Shown in pieces: positions 3,974-26,630 of a stretch of DNA of 64,000 nucleotides. A model generated the notes under the pieces. The model worked only from the letters and a program-made list of their open reading frames with translations. It was not told where the DNA came from and searched no databases. Position 1 is the stretch's first letter. Each line of letters begins with the position of its first letter. Origin of the DNA: Fusobacterium perfoetens ATCC 29250 (GTDB lineage: Bacteria > Fusobacteriota > Fusobacteriia > Fusobacteriales > Fusobacteriaceae); the NCBI RefSeq assembly GCF_000622245.1, contig NZ_KK211417.1, positions 32,798 through 96,797 of the forward strand, given 5' to 3'. The position numbers were made by a program, and so were the translations under genes.

Positions 3974-4414
3974 TTATCTTTTCTTTTCTAAAATTTTTAA
4001 TCTATCTTCAAGATTTTTTATTTTTATATTATTAATTTCAACCATTTTTTTTAAAGTATCTATATCTTCACTTGTTTGGGATAATTTTTCTTCAAATTCT
4101 TTATAATCAAATCCTATTTTATTAAGTTCAGCAGAAAAATTTGTTACAATTCCTCTTAAGACTTCTATTTCTTTTTTATCTATTTTTTCCATATCTAATT
4201 TATTAAATAATTTTGACAATTCATAAGCAAATTGATATCTTGTTAAAGGTGCATTTCCATTAAAATTTACTTCTTTCTCATCTATAATCTGATTATTTAC
4301 TAAATTGTTAATAGATTTATATGCCCAATGTTCTTTGGGAACATCTTTAAATGAAACCTCTCCATATACCATTATTGAAAAAATAAAAAGACTTCCTAAT
4401 AATTTTAATTTCAT
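3974..4414 (-). CDS. Small secreted SLH-domain protein with C-terminal coiled coil
   Basis: A 146-residue exported protein. Residues 1-18 form a signal peptide. Residues about 20-65 resemble a single S-layer homology domain (FKDVPKEHWAYKSI, then LTRYQFAYELSKLF), and residues about 90-146 are heptad-rich and probably coiled coil. In diderms such as Negativicutes, SLH domains on outer-membrane proteins bind modified peptidoglycan and tether the outer membrane. By analogy this small protein may be a periplasmic spacer or tether, but it lacks a beta-barrel and that role is inferred. The ATG has a good upstream binding site. It is not clearly linked to pgi by function. Confidence 0.7.
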   Translation of the reverse strand: MKLKLLGSLFIFSIMVYGEVSFKDVPKEHWAYKSINNLVNNQIIDEKEVNFNGNAPLTRYQFAYELSKLFNKLDMEKIDKKEIEVLRGIVTNFSAELNKIGFDYKEFEEKLSQTSEDIDTLKKMVEINNIKIKNLEDRLKILEKKR

Positions 4415-4477
4415 ATTTCCTCCTTCTCTTAGTATAGCATAAGATTATTCTATTATCAACAATACTTCTAATAAAAA

Positions 4478-5206
4478 TTATTTTAAAATAAACATCTCTT
4501 TAAAAGCTTTTATCCTATTTCTACTTAAAGGAATTTTTTTTGAAATATTCTCAAGTTTTATTAAATAACTTCCACTAAACCAAGCCTCAAGTTCTCTTAT
4601 TTTATCTACATTCACTAAATAAGCTCTATGACTTTTAAAAAATTTTTTATTTGATAAAACTTCTTCTAACTTAGAAATTTTTTGTTTAGTAGTATAAATT
4701 TTATTTTTTGTATAAACTAGACATTCTTTTTCATCAGCTTCTATATAATAGATATCTTCTAAAGACAAAATAATTATTTTTCCATCTTCTGATACAGCTA
4801 ATTTATTTATTAATTCATTTTTTAAAACCTTATTCTCTTCTTTTTGATTAACTTTTAATAATTCTTCTAAAGTTTTCTTTATTCTTTCTTCTGAATAGGG
4901 CTTTAAAATATAATCAAAAGCTTTGATATCAAAAGCTTCTACTCCATATTCTCTATAAGCAGTAATAAATATTATTTTCATATTAGGATTTAACTTATGA
5001 ATAATTTTTCCTAAATTTATCCCATCAATTCCAGGCATATTAATATCTAAAAATGCTATATCAACCTCATTATTTTCTAAAAATTTAAGAGCATCTATAG
5101 GATTATCAAATTCATTTTCTAAATAAAAATCTTTATAAAGATTTATAAAATATTTTAATTCTTCTCTTGCTGGGTATTCATCTTCTACTATTATATAACT
5201 TAACAT
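4478..5206 (-). CDS. LytTR-family response regulator (LytR/BtsR-like)
   Basis: Cytoplasmic transcription regulator of 242 residues. The receiver domain (1-120) has an acidic pair at 9-10, phospho-acceptor Asp54 in FLDINMPGIDG, and Lys in the LKPYS loop. The C-terminal LytTR domain (about 136-240) carries FFKSHRAYLVNVDKI and the ending IPLSRNR, typical of this beta-type DNA-binding fold. It lies nine bases after the LytS-type kinase gene, its likely partner. LytTR proteins bind direct repeats about 21 bp apart, and just such repeats lie at 6921-6975 before the divergent transporter, the probable target. Confidence 0.93.
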   Translation of the reverse strand: MLSYIIVEDEYPAREELKYFINLYKDFYLENEFDNPIDALKFLENNEVDIAFLDINMPGIDGINLGKIIHKLNPNMKIIFITAYREYGVEAFDIKAFDYILKPYSEERIKKTLEELLKVNQKEENKVLKNELINKLAVSEDGKIIILSLEDIYYIEADEKECLVYTKNKIYTTKQKISKLEEVLSNKKFFKSHRAYLVNVDKIRELEAWFSGSYLIKLENISKKIPLSRNRIKAFKEMFILK

Positions 5207-22556: not shown

Positions 22557-22913
22557 TTATTCTACTGCTGCTGTCACAACTATTTCTACTAATAATTCTT
22601 TTTCAGCAAGTGCTGCTTCTACACAAGCTCTAGCTGGAGCAAATCCAGGTTCTACCCAATTATCCCAAACTTCATTCATCTCATCAAAATAACTAATATC
22701 TTTTAAATAAATAGTAGCCATAAGAATTTTTGTTTTATCAGAACCAATCTCTTTTAAAACTCTTTCAATATTTTCTAAAGCTTCTCTTGTTTGAGTCTGA
22801 ACATCCTTTTTTCCTTCATTTTCTTCAAAACAACATTGTCCACAAAGATAAGCTACTCCATTATAAATAACTGCTTCACTTAATCTTTTTCCAACATTAT
22901 ATCTTTTTATCAT
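22557..22913 (-). CDS. ridA: RidA family enamine/imine deaminase
   Basis: A 118-residue member of the YjgF/YER057c/UK114 family, which hydrolyses reactive 2-aminoacrylate-type enamines released by PLP enzymes. The C-terminal PARACVEA contains the conserved arginine that binds the carboxylate, and the VEIVVTAAV end is typical. The fold normally forms trimers in the cytosol. Two adjacent cysteines (GQCCF) in the first half are less usual. The gene is transcribed alone and closed by the terminator at 22525. Confidence 0.9.
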   Translation of the reverse strand: MIKRYNVGKRLSEAVIYNGVAYLCGQCCFEENEGKKDVQTQTREALENIERVLKEIGSDKTKILMATIYLKDISYFDEMNEVWDNWVEPGFAPARACVEAALAEKELLVEIVVTAAVE

Positions 22914-23302: not shown

Positions 23303-24982
23303 TTAGTTTTCAAAAAACTTTTTCATGTCCTCTTCTACTGTTGTGATTCCACCAATTCCAAAATTTTCAACTAAAACTTTTGTAACATTTGGTGATAAAA
23401 ATGCTGGTAATGTTGGCCCTAAATGAATATTTTTTACACCTAAATATAATAAAGCTAATAATACTATTACTGCCTTTTGTTCATACCAAGCAATATTATA
23501 TATGATAGGTAATTGATTTATATCTTCTAATCCAAAAACTTCTTTTAATTTCAGAGCTATTACTGCTAATGAATAAGAATCATTACATTGTCCAGCATCT
23601 AAAACTCTTGGAATTCCTCCAATATCTCCTAAATCTAATTTATTATATTTATATTTTGCACAACCAGCTGTTAAAATAACTGTATCTTTTGGTAAGGCTT
23701 TGGCAAATTCTGTATAATAATCCCTTGATTTCATTCTTCCATCACAACCAGCCATTACCACAAATTTCTTTATAGCTCCTGATTTTACAGCTTCAACAAC
23801 TTTATCAGCTAATGCCAATACTTGATTATGAGCAAACCCTCCAACAATTTCTCCTGTTTCTATCTCTGTTGGTGGTAAAGATTTTTTCGCTAACTCTATT
23901 ACTTCTGAAAAATCTTTTACTCCATTTTCATTTTCTTTTATTCTTTTCCATCCTGGATATCCAGCAGCATTTGTTGTAAATACTTTATCAACATATGAAG
24001 AATTTTGTGTTGGTGGTACAATACAATTTGTTGTAAATACTATTGGCCCATTAAATTTTTCAAATTCTTCTTTTTGTTTCCACCAAGCATTTCCATAATT
24101 TCCTACAAGATGAGAATATTTTTTTAATTCTGGATAATAATGTCCTGGTAACATTTCTGAGTGAGTATATATATCTATGCCACTATCTTTACTTTGTTCT
24201 AATAATTGTCTTAAATCATTTAAGTCATGTCCACTAATAAGTATCCCAGGTTTATTTCCAACTCCTATATTAACTTTTGTTATTTGAGGATTTCCAAAAG
24301 TAGAAGTATTTGCTTCATCTAATAAAGCCATTACTTTTACTCCATAATTTCCACATTCTAATACAAGATTTGTTAACTCCTCTACTGTTAAATTATCATC
24401 TATTGTAGATAATAAAGCTTTCTCTATAAATGAAAAGATTTCCTCATTTACTTTTCCTAAATTCATAGCATGTTCAGCATAAGCTCCCATTCCCTTTAGT
24501 CCATAAGTTAAAAGTTCTCTCAAAGATTTTATATCTTCATTTTCTGTTCTTAAAACTCCAACTTCTTTTCTTTTAGAATACTCTAATATTTCAGAAGTCA
24601 TTTCTAAATTCCAATTTGAAATTTCCTCTCCATATTTTTTTACACTTTCAATTTCTTCATCAGATAATAATTTTTTTAATTCTTCTCTTAATTTTATTCC
24701 TTTTTTTATCTCTTCAATAATAACTACATCATCAAAATTAGCATTAGTAATAGTTATAAATAAAGAATTTATTAAATATCTATTTACTATTTTTTCTAAT
24801 AATTCTTGTCCATTTTCTTTTTTTCTAACTATTGAACTAAAAATTGCCACACCTTTTACTGTATATATTAATAAATCTTGAAGATTTGCTGTTTCAGGTT
24901 TCTTTCCACAAACTCCTACCATTATACAACCTTTACATCCAGCTGTTTCTTGACATTGATAACAAAACATTTTATTTTCCAT
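23303..24982 (-). CDS. hcp: Hybrid cluster protein (hydroxylamine/NO reductase)
   Basis: Iron-sulfur enzyme of 559 residues. Hcp reduces nitric oxide or hydroxylamine and protects anaerobes from nitrosative stress. The N-terminal cluster has C-x2-C-x8-C-x5-C (Cys7, Cys10, Cys19, Cys25), the class I pattern of strict anaerobes, plus an extra Cys16. Hybrid-cluster ligands are visible in [26 protein letters not shown] and LDAGQCND. It is divergent from a CRP/FNR-type regulator, with a palindromic operator between them placed as a class II activator site. A ferredoxin-like gene with the same operator follows that regulator and is a likely electron donor. Confidence 0.96.
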
Positions 24983-25007: not shown

Positions 25008-25013
25008 ATTATA
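25008..25013 (-). promoter_or_regulatory. -10 box of hcp
   Basis: TATAAT on the minus strand, predicted transcription start near 25001. The operator centre (25042.5) is then at about -41.5, with no independent -35 consensus, which is the class II activator geometry. Confidence 0.75.
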
Positions 25014-25033
25014 ACCTTTATATCTATTCTAGT

Positions 25034-25051
25034 ATGTTGCACAAGCAACAT
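25034..25051. promoter_or_regulatory. Palindromic operator between hcp and its regulator
   Basis: ATGTTGC-ACAA-GCAACAT is a perfect seven-base inverted repeat. The core TGTTGC-N4-GCAACA recurs before the ferredoxin gene at 25764-25779. Relative to hcp its centre lies 34.5 bases from the near edge of the -10 box. Relative to the regulator gene it overlaps the -35 region, so the same site could activate hcp and limit the regulator's own expression. Confidence 0.82.
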
Positions 25052-25061
25052 TTATTTATGA

Positions 25062-25067
25062 TATAAT
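25062..25067 (+). promoter_or_regulatory. -10 box of the hcp regulator gene
   Basis: TATAAT, 30 bases before the regulator ATG. The matching -35 region falls inside the palindrome at 25034-25051. Confidence 0.65.
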
Positions 25068-25096
25068 ATTTTTAAGAAAATTTATTAGGAGGATAT

Positions 25097-25759
25097 ATGA
25101 AAGAAAAAATAGAATTTTTAAAAAAATTACCTCTTTTTTTTAATCTAAATGATGAAGAAATATTAAAAGTTTTAAAATTTTTTAATGGTTATGAAAAAAA
25201 ATTTTCAAAAAACAATTTTGTTTTTGAAATTGGAAAACCTATTGATAAAATTGGAATTATTTTATCAGGTGAAATAAATATTATAAAAGAAGATTATTGG
25301 GGAAATAGAAATATTTTAAATAAATTTATCAAAGGAAATATTTTTGGAGAAGTTTTTGCTATTTCAAAATCTTTACCTTTAAATATTGCTGTGGAAACTT
25401 CTTGTGAAACTACAATTTTATTTTTAGATTTTTCTAATTTTTCTTTAAATTTAACTTGTATAGATATTGAAATAAATAAATTTCTATCAAATATTTTTGC
25501 AATTTCCCTTAAGAAAAATATTTTACTTACAGAAAAAATAGAACATATTACAAAAAAATCTATAAGAGAAAAAATATTATCTTATCTCTCTACTATGGCT
25601 CTCAAAAAAAATTCAAATAATTTTGATATACCTTTTGATAGACAAGAGTTAGCTGACTATCTTTCAGTTGAAAGAAGTGCTCTTTCGAGAGAACTTAGTT
25701 CTATGAAAAAAGATGGAATTATTGATTATAAGAAAAATAATTTTATTTTACATAAATAA
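25097..25759 (+). CDS. CRP/FNR-family regulator, HcpR-like
   Basis: A 220-residue transcription regulator. The cyclic-nucleotide-binding fold spans about 10-120 (GEINIIKEDYWGN, GNIFGEVFAI) and the Crp-type helix-turn-helix about 150-215 (DRQELADYLSVERSALSREL). It has no N-terminal cysteine cluster, so it is not an FNR-type iron-sulfur oxygen sensor. Position beside hcp and the shared palindromes point to an HcpR-like regulator responding to nitric oxide or nitrosative stress, possibly through heme; the signal is inferred. The recognition helix RSALSR differs from that of CRP and FNR, in keeping with a different operator (TGTTGC half-site). Confidence 0.87.
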   Translation: MKEKIEFLKKLPLFFNLNDEEILKVLKFFNGYEKKFSKNNFVFEIGKPIDKIGIILSGEINIIKEDYWGNRNILNKFIKGNIFGEVFAISKSLPLNIAVETSCETTILFLDFSNFSLNLTCIDIEINKFLSNIFAISLKKNILLTEKIEHITKKSIREKILSYLSTMALKKNSNNFDIPFDRQELADYLSVERSALSRELSSMKKDGIIDYKKNNFILHK

Positions 25760-25763
25760 AAAT

Positions 25764-25806
25764 TGTTGCAACAGCAACATATTTTTTAAAATTTTTATAT
25801 TATAAT
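25764..25806 (+). promoter_or_regulatory. Operator and -10 box of the ferredoxin gene
   Basis: TGTTGC-AACA-GCAACA (25764-25779) and TATAAT (25801-25806). The operator centre at 25771.5 is 34.5 bases from the end of the -10 box, exactly the geometry seen at hcp, placing it at -41.5 from a start near 25813. Confidence 0.8.
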
Positions 25807-25838: not shown

Positions 25839-26588
25839 ATGATTCGTAAAATAATAAAAATAGATGAAAATAAATGTGATGGGTGTGGAGCTTGTGTCAA
25901 TGCTTGTCATGAGGGAGCTATTGGTTTAGTAAATGGAAAAGCTAAACTTTTAAGAGATGATTATTGTGATGGATTAGGAGATTGTTTACCATCTTGTCAT
26001 ACAGGAGCTATAACTTTTGAAGAAAGAGAGGCTCTTCCATATGATGAGGCTGCTGTTTTATCAAATATGGCTAAGAAAAATTCAAATAATTGTTCTAATG
26101 GTGGGTGTCCTGGAAGTCAAAGTAAAGTTATAAATCATCATATCGGTTGTCCTAGTTCAAATTCTAAAAAAATAGAAATAGAAACTGATAACAATCAAAA
26201 TTTTGAAGAAGGAGTTTTAAAAAGTAAATTACAACAATGGCCTGTTCAAATAAAATTAGTACCTATTAATGCTCCTTATTTTGAAAATTCTAATCTTCTT
26301 ATAGCTGCTGATTGTACAGCCTTTGCTTATGGAAATTTTCACAATGAATTTATTAAAAATCGTATAACTTTAATTGGTTGTCCAAAATTAGATTCTGGTG
26401 ATTATGAAGAAAAATTAACTGCTATAATAAAAAATAATAATATAAAATCTTTAACAATTGTTAGAATGGAAGTTCCTTGTTGTGGGGGTATTGAAAGAGC
26501 TGCTGTAAATGCTTTAAAAAATAGTGGTAAATTTATCCCTTGGCAAGTTATCACAATTTCTATTGATGGAAAAAAATTAGATATTTAA
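25839..26588 (+). CDS. Ferredoxin-type 4Fe-4S protein of the hcp regulon
   Basis: A 249-residue protein with an N-terminal pair of cluster motifs, CDGCGACVNACHEGA (about 13-27) and YCDGLGDCLPSCHTGA (about 47-62); the second motif has a changed first spacing. A linker (about 80-130) has more cysteines in GGCPG and GCPSS. The C-terminal half has CTAFAYGNFH, GCPKLD and VPCCGGIE, the pattern of a family often found beside hcp in anaerobes. Its promoter has the same operator and spacing as hcp. It probably passes electrons to Hcp, though this role is inferred from context. Confidence 0.85.
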   Translation: MIRKIIKIDENKCDGCGACVNACHEGAIGLVNGKAKLLRDDYCDGLGDCLPSCHTGAITFEEREALPYDEAAVLSNMAKKNSNNCSNGGCPGSQSKVINHHIGCPSSNSKKIEIETDNNQNFEEGVLKSKLQQWPVQIKLVPINAPYFENSNLLIAADCTAFAYGNFHNEFIKNRITLIGCPKLDSGDYEEKLTAIIKNNNIKSLTIVRMEVPCCGGIERAAVNALKNSGKFIPWQVITISIDGKKLDI

Positions 26589-26594
26589 AAATAA

Positions 26595-26630
26595 AAAAAT
26601 CAGGATAGAATTTAATCTAACCTGATTTTT
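26595..26630. terminator. Bidirectional terminator between the ferredoxin gene and pfkA
   Basis: Ten-bp stem AAAAATCAGG/CCTGATTTTT enclosing a smaller TAGA/TCTA pairing, A-rich on one side and T-rich on the other. It lies between two convergent genes. Confidence 0.85.

What the first reader, a model, noticed from the sequence alone, without database searches (positions are those of the whole stretch)
25008..25806. One operator, three promoters: an Hcp regulon with fixed class II geometry
TGTTGC-N4-GCAACA lies before hcp and before the ferredoxin gene, in both cases 34.5 bp from the -10 box (-41.5 from the predicted start). The copy at hcp also covers the -35 region of the regulator. This predicts activation of hcp and the ferredoxin gene together with self-limitation of the regulator.
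Basis: partly seen in the sequence, partly recalled or inferred. Interest (0 to 1): 0.6.

Follow-up and report, generated by a model that had tools for sequence, protein, structure and literature searches.

The report
Nitric-oxide defence operator in a fusobacterium
Two copies of one 16-base DNA palindrome sit at an identical, evolutionarily fixed distance in front of the genes for the nitric-oxide defence enzyme Hcp and its partner ferredoxin, and one copy also overlaps the promoter of the regulator that very probably binds them; this is a known kind of circuit (HcpR) with a new operator sequence.

Summary
TGTTGC-N4-GCAACA occurs exactly at 25035-25050 (between divergent hcp and hcpR) and 25764-25779 (between hcpR and frdX). 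In both, 21 bp separate it from the -10 hexamer, which implies a centre at -41.5. The first copy also overlaps the -35 region of hcpR, whose own promoter is an extended -10 (TGATATAAT). Genome-wide, about 0.02 exact copies are expected. Three exist, and only these two are intergenic. Operator + 22 bp + TATAAT, with either half-site letter, gives three perfect hits: hcp, frdX and a paralogous regulator's thioredoxin locus. In relatives the 21-bp gap holds in 23 of 23 promoters, and in 82 of 109 regulator loci across several phyla, although the spacers of hcp and frdX are unlike each other. The regulator's recognition helix co-varies with the operator: Arg185 goes with TGTTGC; Asn, Ser, Tyr, His, Lys or Ala there with ...T half-sites; Pro181 with GGTAAC/GGTAGC. 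That ties this regulator to this palindrome. Repression of hcpR is plausible but rests on geometry alone, and the layout is absent in two genus members. It is an HcpR regulon, known in other anaerobes, with an operator variant I found in no paper held, and with frdX included.

The parts
23303..24982 (-). hcp, hybrid-cluster protein / prismane (559 aa)
   Evidence: Pfam Prismane 2.6e-182; NCBIfam PRK05290 and TIGR01703 above cut-off
25008..25013 (-). -10 box of hcp (TATAAT)
   Evidence: 21 bp from operator edge; TATAAT or 5/6 at that exact position in all 9 hcp promoters compared
25035..25050 (.). operator 1, TGTTGCACAAGCAACA, shared by hcp and hcpR
   Evidence: exact palindrome; intergenic; conserved with at most 1 mismatch in relatives
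25059..25067 (+). extended -10 of hcpR (TG-A-TATAAT)
   Evidence: TATGATATAAT conserved in 6 of 7 hcpR promoters of the genus and G030 with an upstream operator; expected -35 lies inside operator 1
25097..25759 (+). hcpR, Crp/Fnr-family regulator (220 aa), recognition helix ERSALSRELS (R180 S181 R185 in CRP numbering)
   Evidence: Pfam cNMP_binding 6.6e-10 and HTH_Crp_2 1.7e-10; helix aligned to E. coli CRP
25764..25779 (.). operator 2, TGTTGCAACAGCAACA, for frdX
   Evidence: exact palindrome; begins 5 bp after the hcpR stop codon; conserved in all 8 tandem hcpR-frdX loci
25801..25806 (+). -10 box of frdX (TATAAT)
   Evidence: 21 bp from operator 2; TATAAT or 5/6 at that exact position in 10 of 10 frdX promoters compared
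25839..26588 (+). frdX, ferredoxin-like protein (249 aa) with N-terminal 4Fe-4S dicluster
   Evidence: Pfam Fer4_6 1.7e-9, Fer4_7 4e-7; homologues lie next to hcpR in a Bacillota and several Endomicrobia genomes
26595..26630 (+). intrinsic terminator after frdX
   Evidence: stem-loop -14.6 kcal/mol, z -4.3, followed by a T tract

Best explanation
This is an HcpR regulon in a Fusobacteriaceae genome. HcpR, when activated (by analogy with characterised HcpRs, by nitric oxide or related nitrogen species), binds as a dimer to TGTTGC-N4-GCAACA. It stands at -41.5 in front of hcp and frdX and contacts RNA polymerase as a class II activator at two promoters that lack a -35 element, so Hcp and its ferredoxin partner rise together. 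The same dimer at the hcp side covers the -35 region of the divergent hcpR promoter, an extended -10 promoter, and most likely limits hcpR expression. Shown here: the sites, their uniqueness in the genome, the invariant geometry, conservation, and co-variation of regulator and operator. Inferred: binding itself, the direction of regulation, the inducing signal, and auto-repression.
For: Exact sites; only two intergenic copies in the genome; operator + 22 bp + TATAAT matches perfectly only at hcp, frdX and the paralogue's thioredoxin locus. The -10 stands at exactly 21 bp in 23 of 23 activated promoters of relatives, 21 of them perfect TATAAT, against about 5% chance each; the hcp and frdX spacers within one genome are only 33-43% alike, so the distance is kept while the sequence is not. 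The same 21-bp gap occurs in 82 of 109 regulator-operator loci overall and 66 of 92 outside Fusobacteriota. Arg185 goes with half-sites ending in C in 71 of 74 scored loci, and non-Arg185 with other letters in 25 of 25. NO induction of hcp and frdX that needs HcpR is published for C. difficile (PMC12915319).
Against: No start sites, binding or expression data exist for this organism. Met68, the heme-linked residue of P. gingivalis HcpR, is a Lys here, and no His or Cys is conserved across the close HcpR homologues, so the sensing step is unproven. The operator is absent before hcpR in G031 and G034, where hcp is not divergent from hcpR, so auto-repression is not universal. Rows of relatives share ancestry, so the product of chance probabilities overstates independence.
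Confidence: 0.87

Rival explanations
1. HcpR activates hcp and frdX as described, but the hcp-side operator has no repressive effect on hcpR; the extended -10 lets hcpR fire independently of the -35 region.
For: The hcpR promoter carries a conserved extended -10 (TATGATATAAT), which can work without a -35. In G033 and G036 the -10 lies 15 bp, not 10-11 bp, from the operator, and G031/G034 have no operator there.
Against: In G030, G032, G035 and the window the operator centre would sit near -31, and in G033/G036 near -35.5, positions where a bound Crp/Fnr dimer would usually clash with RNA polymerase (established knowledge). In G047, G048 and the paralogues the operator lies directly before the regulator's start codon, also a repressive position.
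Confidence: 0.25
2. The frdX-side palindrome is also, or mainly, the intrinsic terminator of hcpR: a 6-bp hairpin followed by a T run.
For: The RNA folds with -5.3 to -11 kcal/mol and a T run follows in all 8 tandem hcpR-frdX loci; a pattern scan lists it as terminator-like.
Against: The same T run follows the operator at all four thioredoxin promoters, which have no co-directional gene upstream, and similar T-rich spacers occur in divergent promoters of other phyla. The hairpin is weak next to the real terminator after frdX, -14.6 kcal/mol. A terminator would not explain the fixed 21-bp gap.
Confidence: 0.12
3. A different regulator, for example the paralogue on contig 5 of this genome, binds these sites.
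For: The paralogue is 43-45% identical and its own operator differs by one base pair per half-site, TGTTGT-N4-ACAACA.
Against: Its residue 185 is Ser, and residue 185 tracks the operator letter across the family; it sits at its own T-type operator before a CoA-binding/thioredoxin operon.
Confidence: 0.05

Closest known systems
HcpR2 regulon of Rodionov et al. 2005 (PMC1274295), including Fusobacterium nucleatum
   Same: Crp/Fnr regulator next to hcp, palindromic operator upstream of hcp; frdX is a core member of HcpR regulons elsewhere. The hcp promoter of a sampled relative carrying the published-type site (GGTAACATAGGTTACC, L191) also shows the 21-bp gap to a TATTAT box.
   Different: The published consensus for most members is GTAACnnnnGTTAC with Pro181, and the F. 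nucleatum regulon was given as hcp alone. Here Ser181/Arg185 go with TGTTGC-N4-GCAACA, and frdX is included.
HcpR of Clostridioides difficile (PMC12915319)
   Same: Controls frdX and hcp; NO induces both about 200-fold only if hcpR is intact; hcpR co-localises with them.
   Different: There frdX-hcp share one upstream site; here hcp and frdX have separate promoters on opposite strands. The paper gives no operator-to-promoter geometry in the passages read.
HcpR of Porphyromonas gingivalis (PDB 9DAY, PMC12750200)
   Same: Crp/Fnr fold by sequence (E 5.7e-20), activator of hcp.
   Different: The heme-linked Met68 aligns with Lys in the window protein.
Class II CRP/FNR-dependent promoters of E. 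coli
   Same: Activator centred at -41.5, no recognisable -35 element at hcp and frdX.
   Different: Operator sequence; recognition helix with Ser instead of Glu at position 181.

Membership tests
HcpR regulon | Crp/Fnr-family regulator encoded next to hcp | tested here: met
   hcpR divergent from hcp, 114 bp apart; Pfam cNMP_binding and HTH_Crp_2 above cut-off
HcpR regulon | palindromic Crp/Fnr-type operator upstream of hcp and frdX | tested here: met
   exact sites before both genes and nowhere else intergenic in the genome
HcpR regulon | published HcpR2 consensus GTAACnnnnGTTAC with Pro181 | tested here: not met
   operator is GTTGCnnnnGCAAC with Ser181; the 2005 paper itself reports Ser181 members with deviating motifs, so this marks a variant, not exclusion
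HcpR regulon | no FNR-type cysteine set | tested here: met
   the close HcpR homologues have 0-6 Cys, none conserved; one has none
HcpR regulon | response to NO through heme, Met68 in P. gingivalis | tested here: inconclusive
   Met68 position is Lys; heme binding itself cannot be tested here
Class II Crp/Fnr-activated promoter | operator centre at -41.5 | tested here: met
   inferred from the -10 position, 21-bp gap in 23 of 23 promoters; true start sites not mapped
Class II Crp/Fnr-activated promoter | activation through contact with RNA polymerase | not testable with these tools
   needs in vitro transcription

The most novel reading that the evidence does not exclude
Two residues of the HcpR recognition helix form a simple operator code: residue 181 sets base 5 of the half-site (Pro gives A; Ser/Thr/Ala mostly T) and residue 185 sets base 7 (Arg gives C; Asn, Ser, Tyr, His, Lys, Ala give T; Val gives G). 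In this genome the code keeps two paralogous regulators apart, HcpR on TGTTGC (hcp, frdX) and its paralogue on TGTTGT (thioredoxin operon), by one base pair per half-site. All of them share one fixed -41.5 promoter architecture across phyla.
Probability: 0.6. Interest if true: 0.6.

Novelty: new variant of a known kind. Interest (0 to 1): 0.45.

Why it matters
The regulon is a compact and fully enumerated nitrosative-stress circuit: three genes, two operators, three promoters, nothing else found in the genome. Its fixed geometry turns a motif guess into a testable promoter model. The regulator-operator co-variation offers direct single-residue specificity swaps between two paralogues that live in one cell, which could make the evolution of Crp/Fnr specificity testable. 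It also extends the published fusobacterial HcpR regulon from hcp alone to hcp plus frdX.

Tried and rejected
Extra regulon members: every other exact or 1-mismatch C-type site lies in an ORF. Two exact T-type sites in this genome (contig 3:1736, contig 5:58215) lie between convergent genes and look like terminator stems. Operator 2 as the hcpR terminator: weak hairpin, and the T run also occurs at promoters with no upstream gene. The second TATAAT before frdX as the true -10: not conserved. FNR-type Fe-S sensing: no conserved cysteines. Independence of the operator code: six changes each of residue 185 and of base 7 on the tree, but only one independent pair on well-supported branches, so no formal significance. 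Three R185 loci scored as exceptions (L272, L289, L294) are low-quality palindromes, probably chance. A scan of viral contigs found no relative. Literature searches for TGTTGC/GCAACA with HcpR found no published match.

Full report
Observation. The window (26% G+C) belongs to a 2.10-Mb genome held as G000; its relatives and gene content place it in Fusobacteriaceae (inference; organism names are withheld). hcp (23303-24982, minus) and a Crp/Fnr regulator (25097-25759, plus) are divergent, and a ferredoxin-like gene (25839-26588, plus) follows the regulator. TGTTGC-N4-GCAACA is exact at 25035-25050 and 25764-25779.

Chance and completeness. A first-order model of the window expects 0.016 exact copies per genome. 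There are three, one of them inside the rpsE-like ORF, and all eight single-mismatch copies are inside ORFs too. Searching the genome for GTTGY-N4-RCAAC + 22 bp + TATAAT gives three perfect hits, hcp, frdX and the divergent side of a paralogous regulator, and then falls off to chance-like sites.

Fixed geometry. In relatives the -10 stands at exactly 21 bp from the operator in 23 of 23 promoters: 9 of hcp, 10 of frdX and 4 of a thioredoxin operon. It is a perfect TATAAT in 21 of them, and chance is about 5% per promoter. Within one genome the hcp and frdX spacers are only 33-43% identical, close to background for such A+T-rich DNA, so selection has kept the distance, not the sequence. Using Bacillota genomes and named Endomicrobia loci as a wider sample, 82 of 109 regulator-operator loci, and 66 of 92 outside Fusobacteriota, have a -10-like hexamer at that same 21-bp gap on the side away from the regulator; the next highest count (41 at a gap of 16) looks like overlapping A/T runs such as TATTATAAT. 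An hcp gene in a different fusobacterial genus carries the published-type site GGTAAC-N4-GTTACC, again 21 bp from a TATTAT box (reading of the printed sequence). The -41.5 class II layout thus looks like a family-wide property of HcpR-type regulators.

The regulator's own promoter. hcpR has an extended -10, TGATATAAT at 25059-25067, conserved as TATGATATAAT in most relatives. Its expected -35 lies within operator 1. This fits steric self-limitation, but the distance varies (10, 11 or 15 bp), and in G031 and G034, where hcp is not divergent from hcpR, no operator precedes hcpR. Auto-repression is therefore an inference from layout, weaker than the activation claim.

Does this regulator bind this palindrome? 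The strongest indirect evidence is co-variation. Aligning recognition helices to E. coli CRP and reading the palindrome before each regulator: Ser/Thr181 + Arg185 goes with NGTTGC; Ser181 + Asn/Ser/Tyr with NGTTGT; His/Lys/Ala185 with NGTTGT or NGTGGT; Val185 with TGTTGG or TGTTTG; Pro181 + Arg185 with GGTAAC, or GGTAGC where position 183 is usually Met. Arg185 versus C at base 7: 71 against 3, and 25 of 25 for non-Arg without C. Pro181 versus A at base 5: 51 against 1, and 55 of 55 for the rest. Relatedness limits the inference: the tree needs six changes of each trait, but only one independent pair rests on well-supported branches. The rule seems confined to helices without Glu181, since CRP and FNR keep an arginine at 185 with other bases at that place (own knowledge). 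Rodionov et al. 2005 reported correlations for residues 180 and 181 only; I found no report on 185 in the papers searched, though most subscription journals are not covered.

Two circuits in one cell. The same genome has a second regulator, 43-45% identical, with Ser185 and the operator TGTTGTTTTTACAACA. It stands divergent from a CoA-binding protein and thioredoxin operon with the same 21-bp geometry. The two regulons would be separated by one base pair per half-site.

Gene history. The window's Hcp, with its sister species G032, does not group with the HcpR-linked Hcp of the other genus members but with Hcp of two other genera in the family (main split 100), whereas HcpR groups with the genus members and FrdX is most like theirs. 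The coding sequence of hcp was probably replaced, or a different ancient copy kept, while operator and spacing persisted. This is a further sign that the operator geometry, not the gene, is the conserved unit.

Sensing. By analogy with C. difficile, where NO induces hcp and frdX about 200-fold in an HcpR-dependent way (PMC12915319), and with P. gingivalis, where HcpR uses heme with Met68 (PMC12750200), the signal is probably NO. But Met68 aligns with Lys here and neither Cys nor His is conserved in the close HcpR homologues, so how this HcpR senses is open.

Verdict. It is a known kind of circuit with a new operator variant, and the operator code is the most interesting by-product.

Noticed in passing
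G000 contig 5:89080-89730 (L083 about 4078-4743): Paralogous Crp/Fnr regulator (Ser185) with operator TGTTGTTTTTACAACA, divergent from a CoA-binding protein and thioredoxin operon; same 21-bp gap to TATAAT. Conserved in three other genus members.
   Followed up: partly
loci L083-L102, L156-L160, L199-L308: Recognition-helix residues 181 and 185 (CRP numbering) co-vary with half-site bases 5 and 7 across HcpR-like regulators.
   Followed up: yes
window 23303-24982: Hcp of this genome and its sister species belongs to a different Hcp clade from the HcpR-linked Hcp of other genus members, suggesting replacement of the coding sequence under a kept operator.
   Followed up: partly
L086 and L087 (G030): One genome carries two hcpR copies on different contigs, one beside frdX and one beside hcp, each with operators.
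   Followed up: no
L101 4829-4844, L102 5832-5847: Distant Crp/Fnr regulators (about 27% identical) in another genus also have Arg185 and a TGTTGC-N4-GCAACA palindrome upstream; their targets were not examined.
   Followed up: no
window 22557-22913; L089 6024-6383; L090 2349-2708: A RidA-family gene lies downstream of hcp here and directly downstream in two relatives; in the window a terminator-like hairpin (23294-23270) separates them.
   Followed up: no
window 25780-25800 and relatives: A T run follows the operator at frdX and thioredoxin promoters but not at hcp promoters; reason unknown.
   Followed up: partly
G031, G034 genomes: A second hcp copy lies far from hcpR; its upstream region was not examined.
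   Followed up: no
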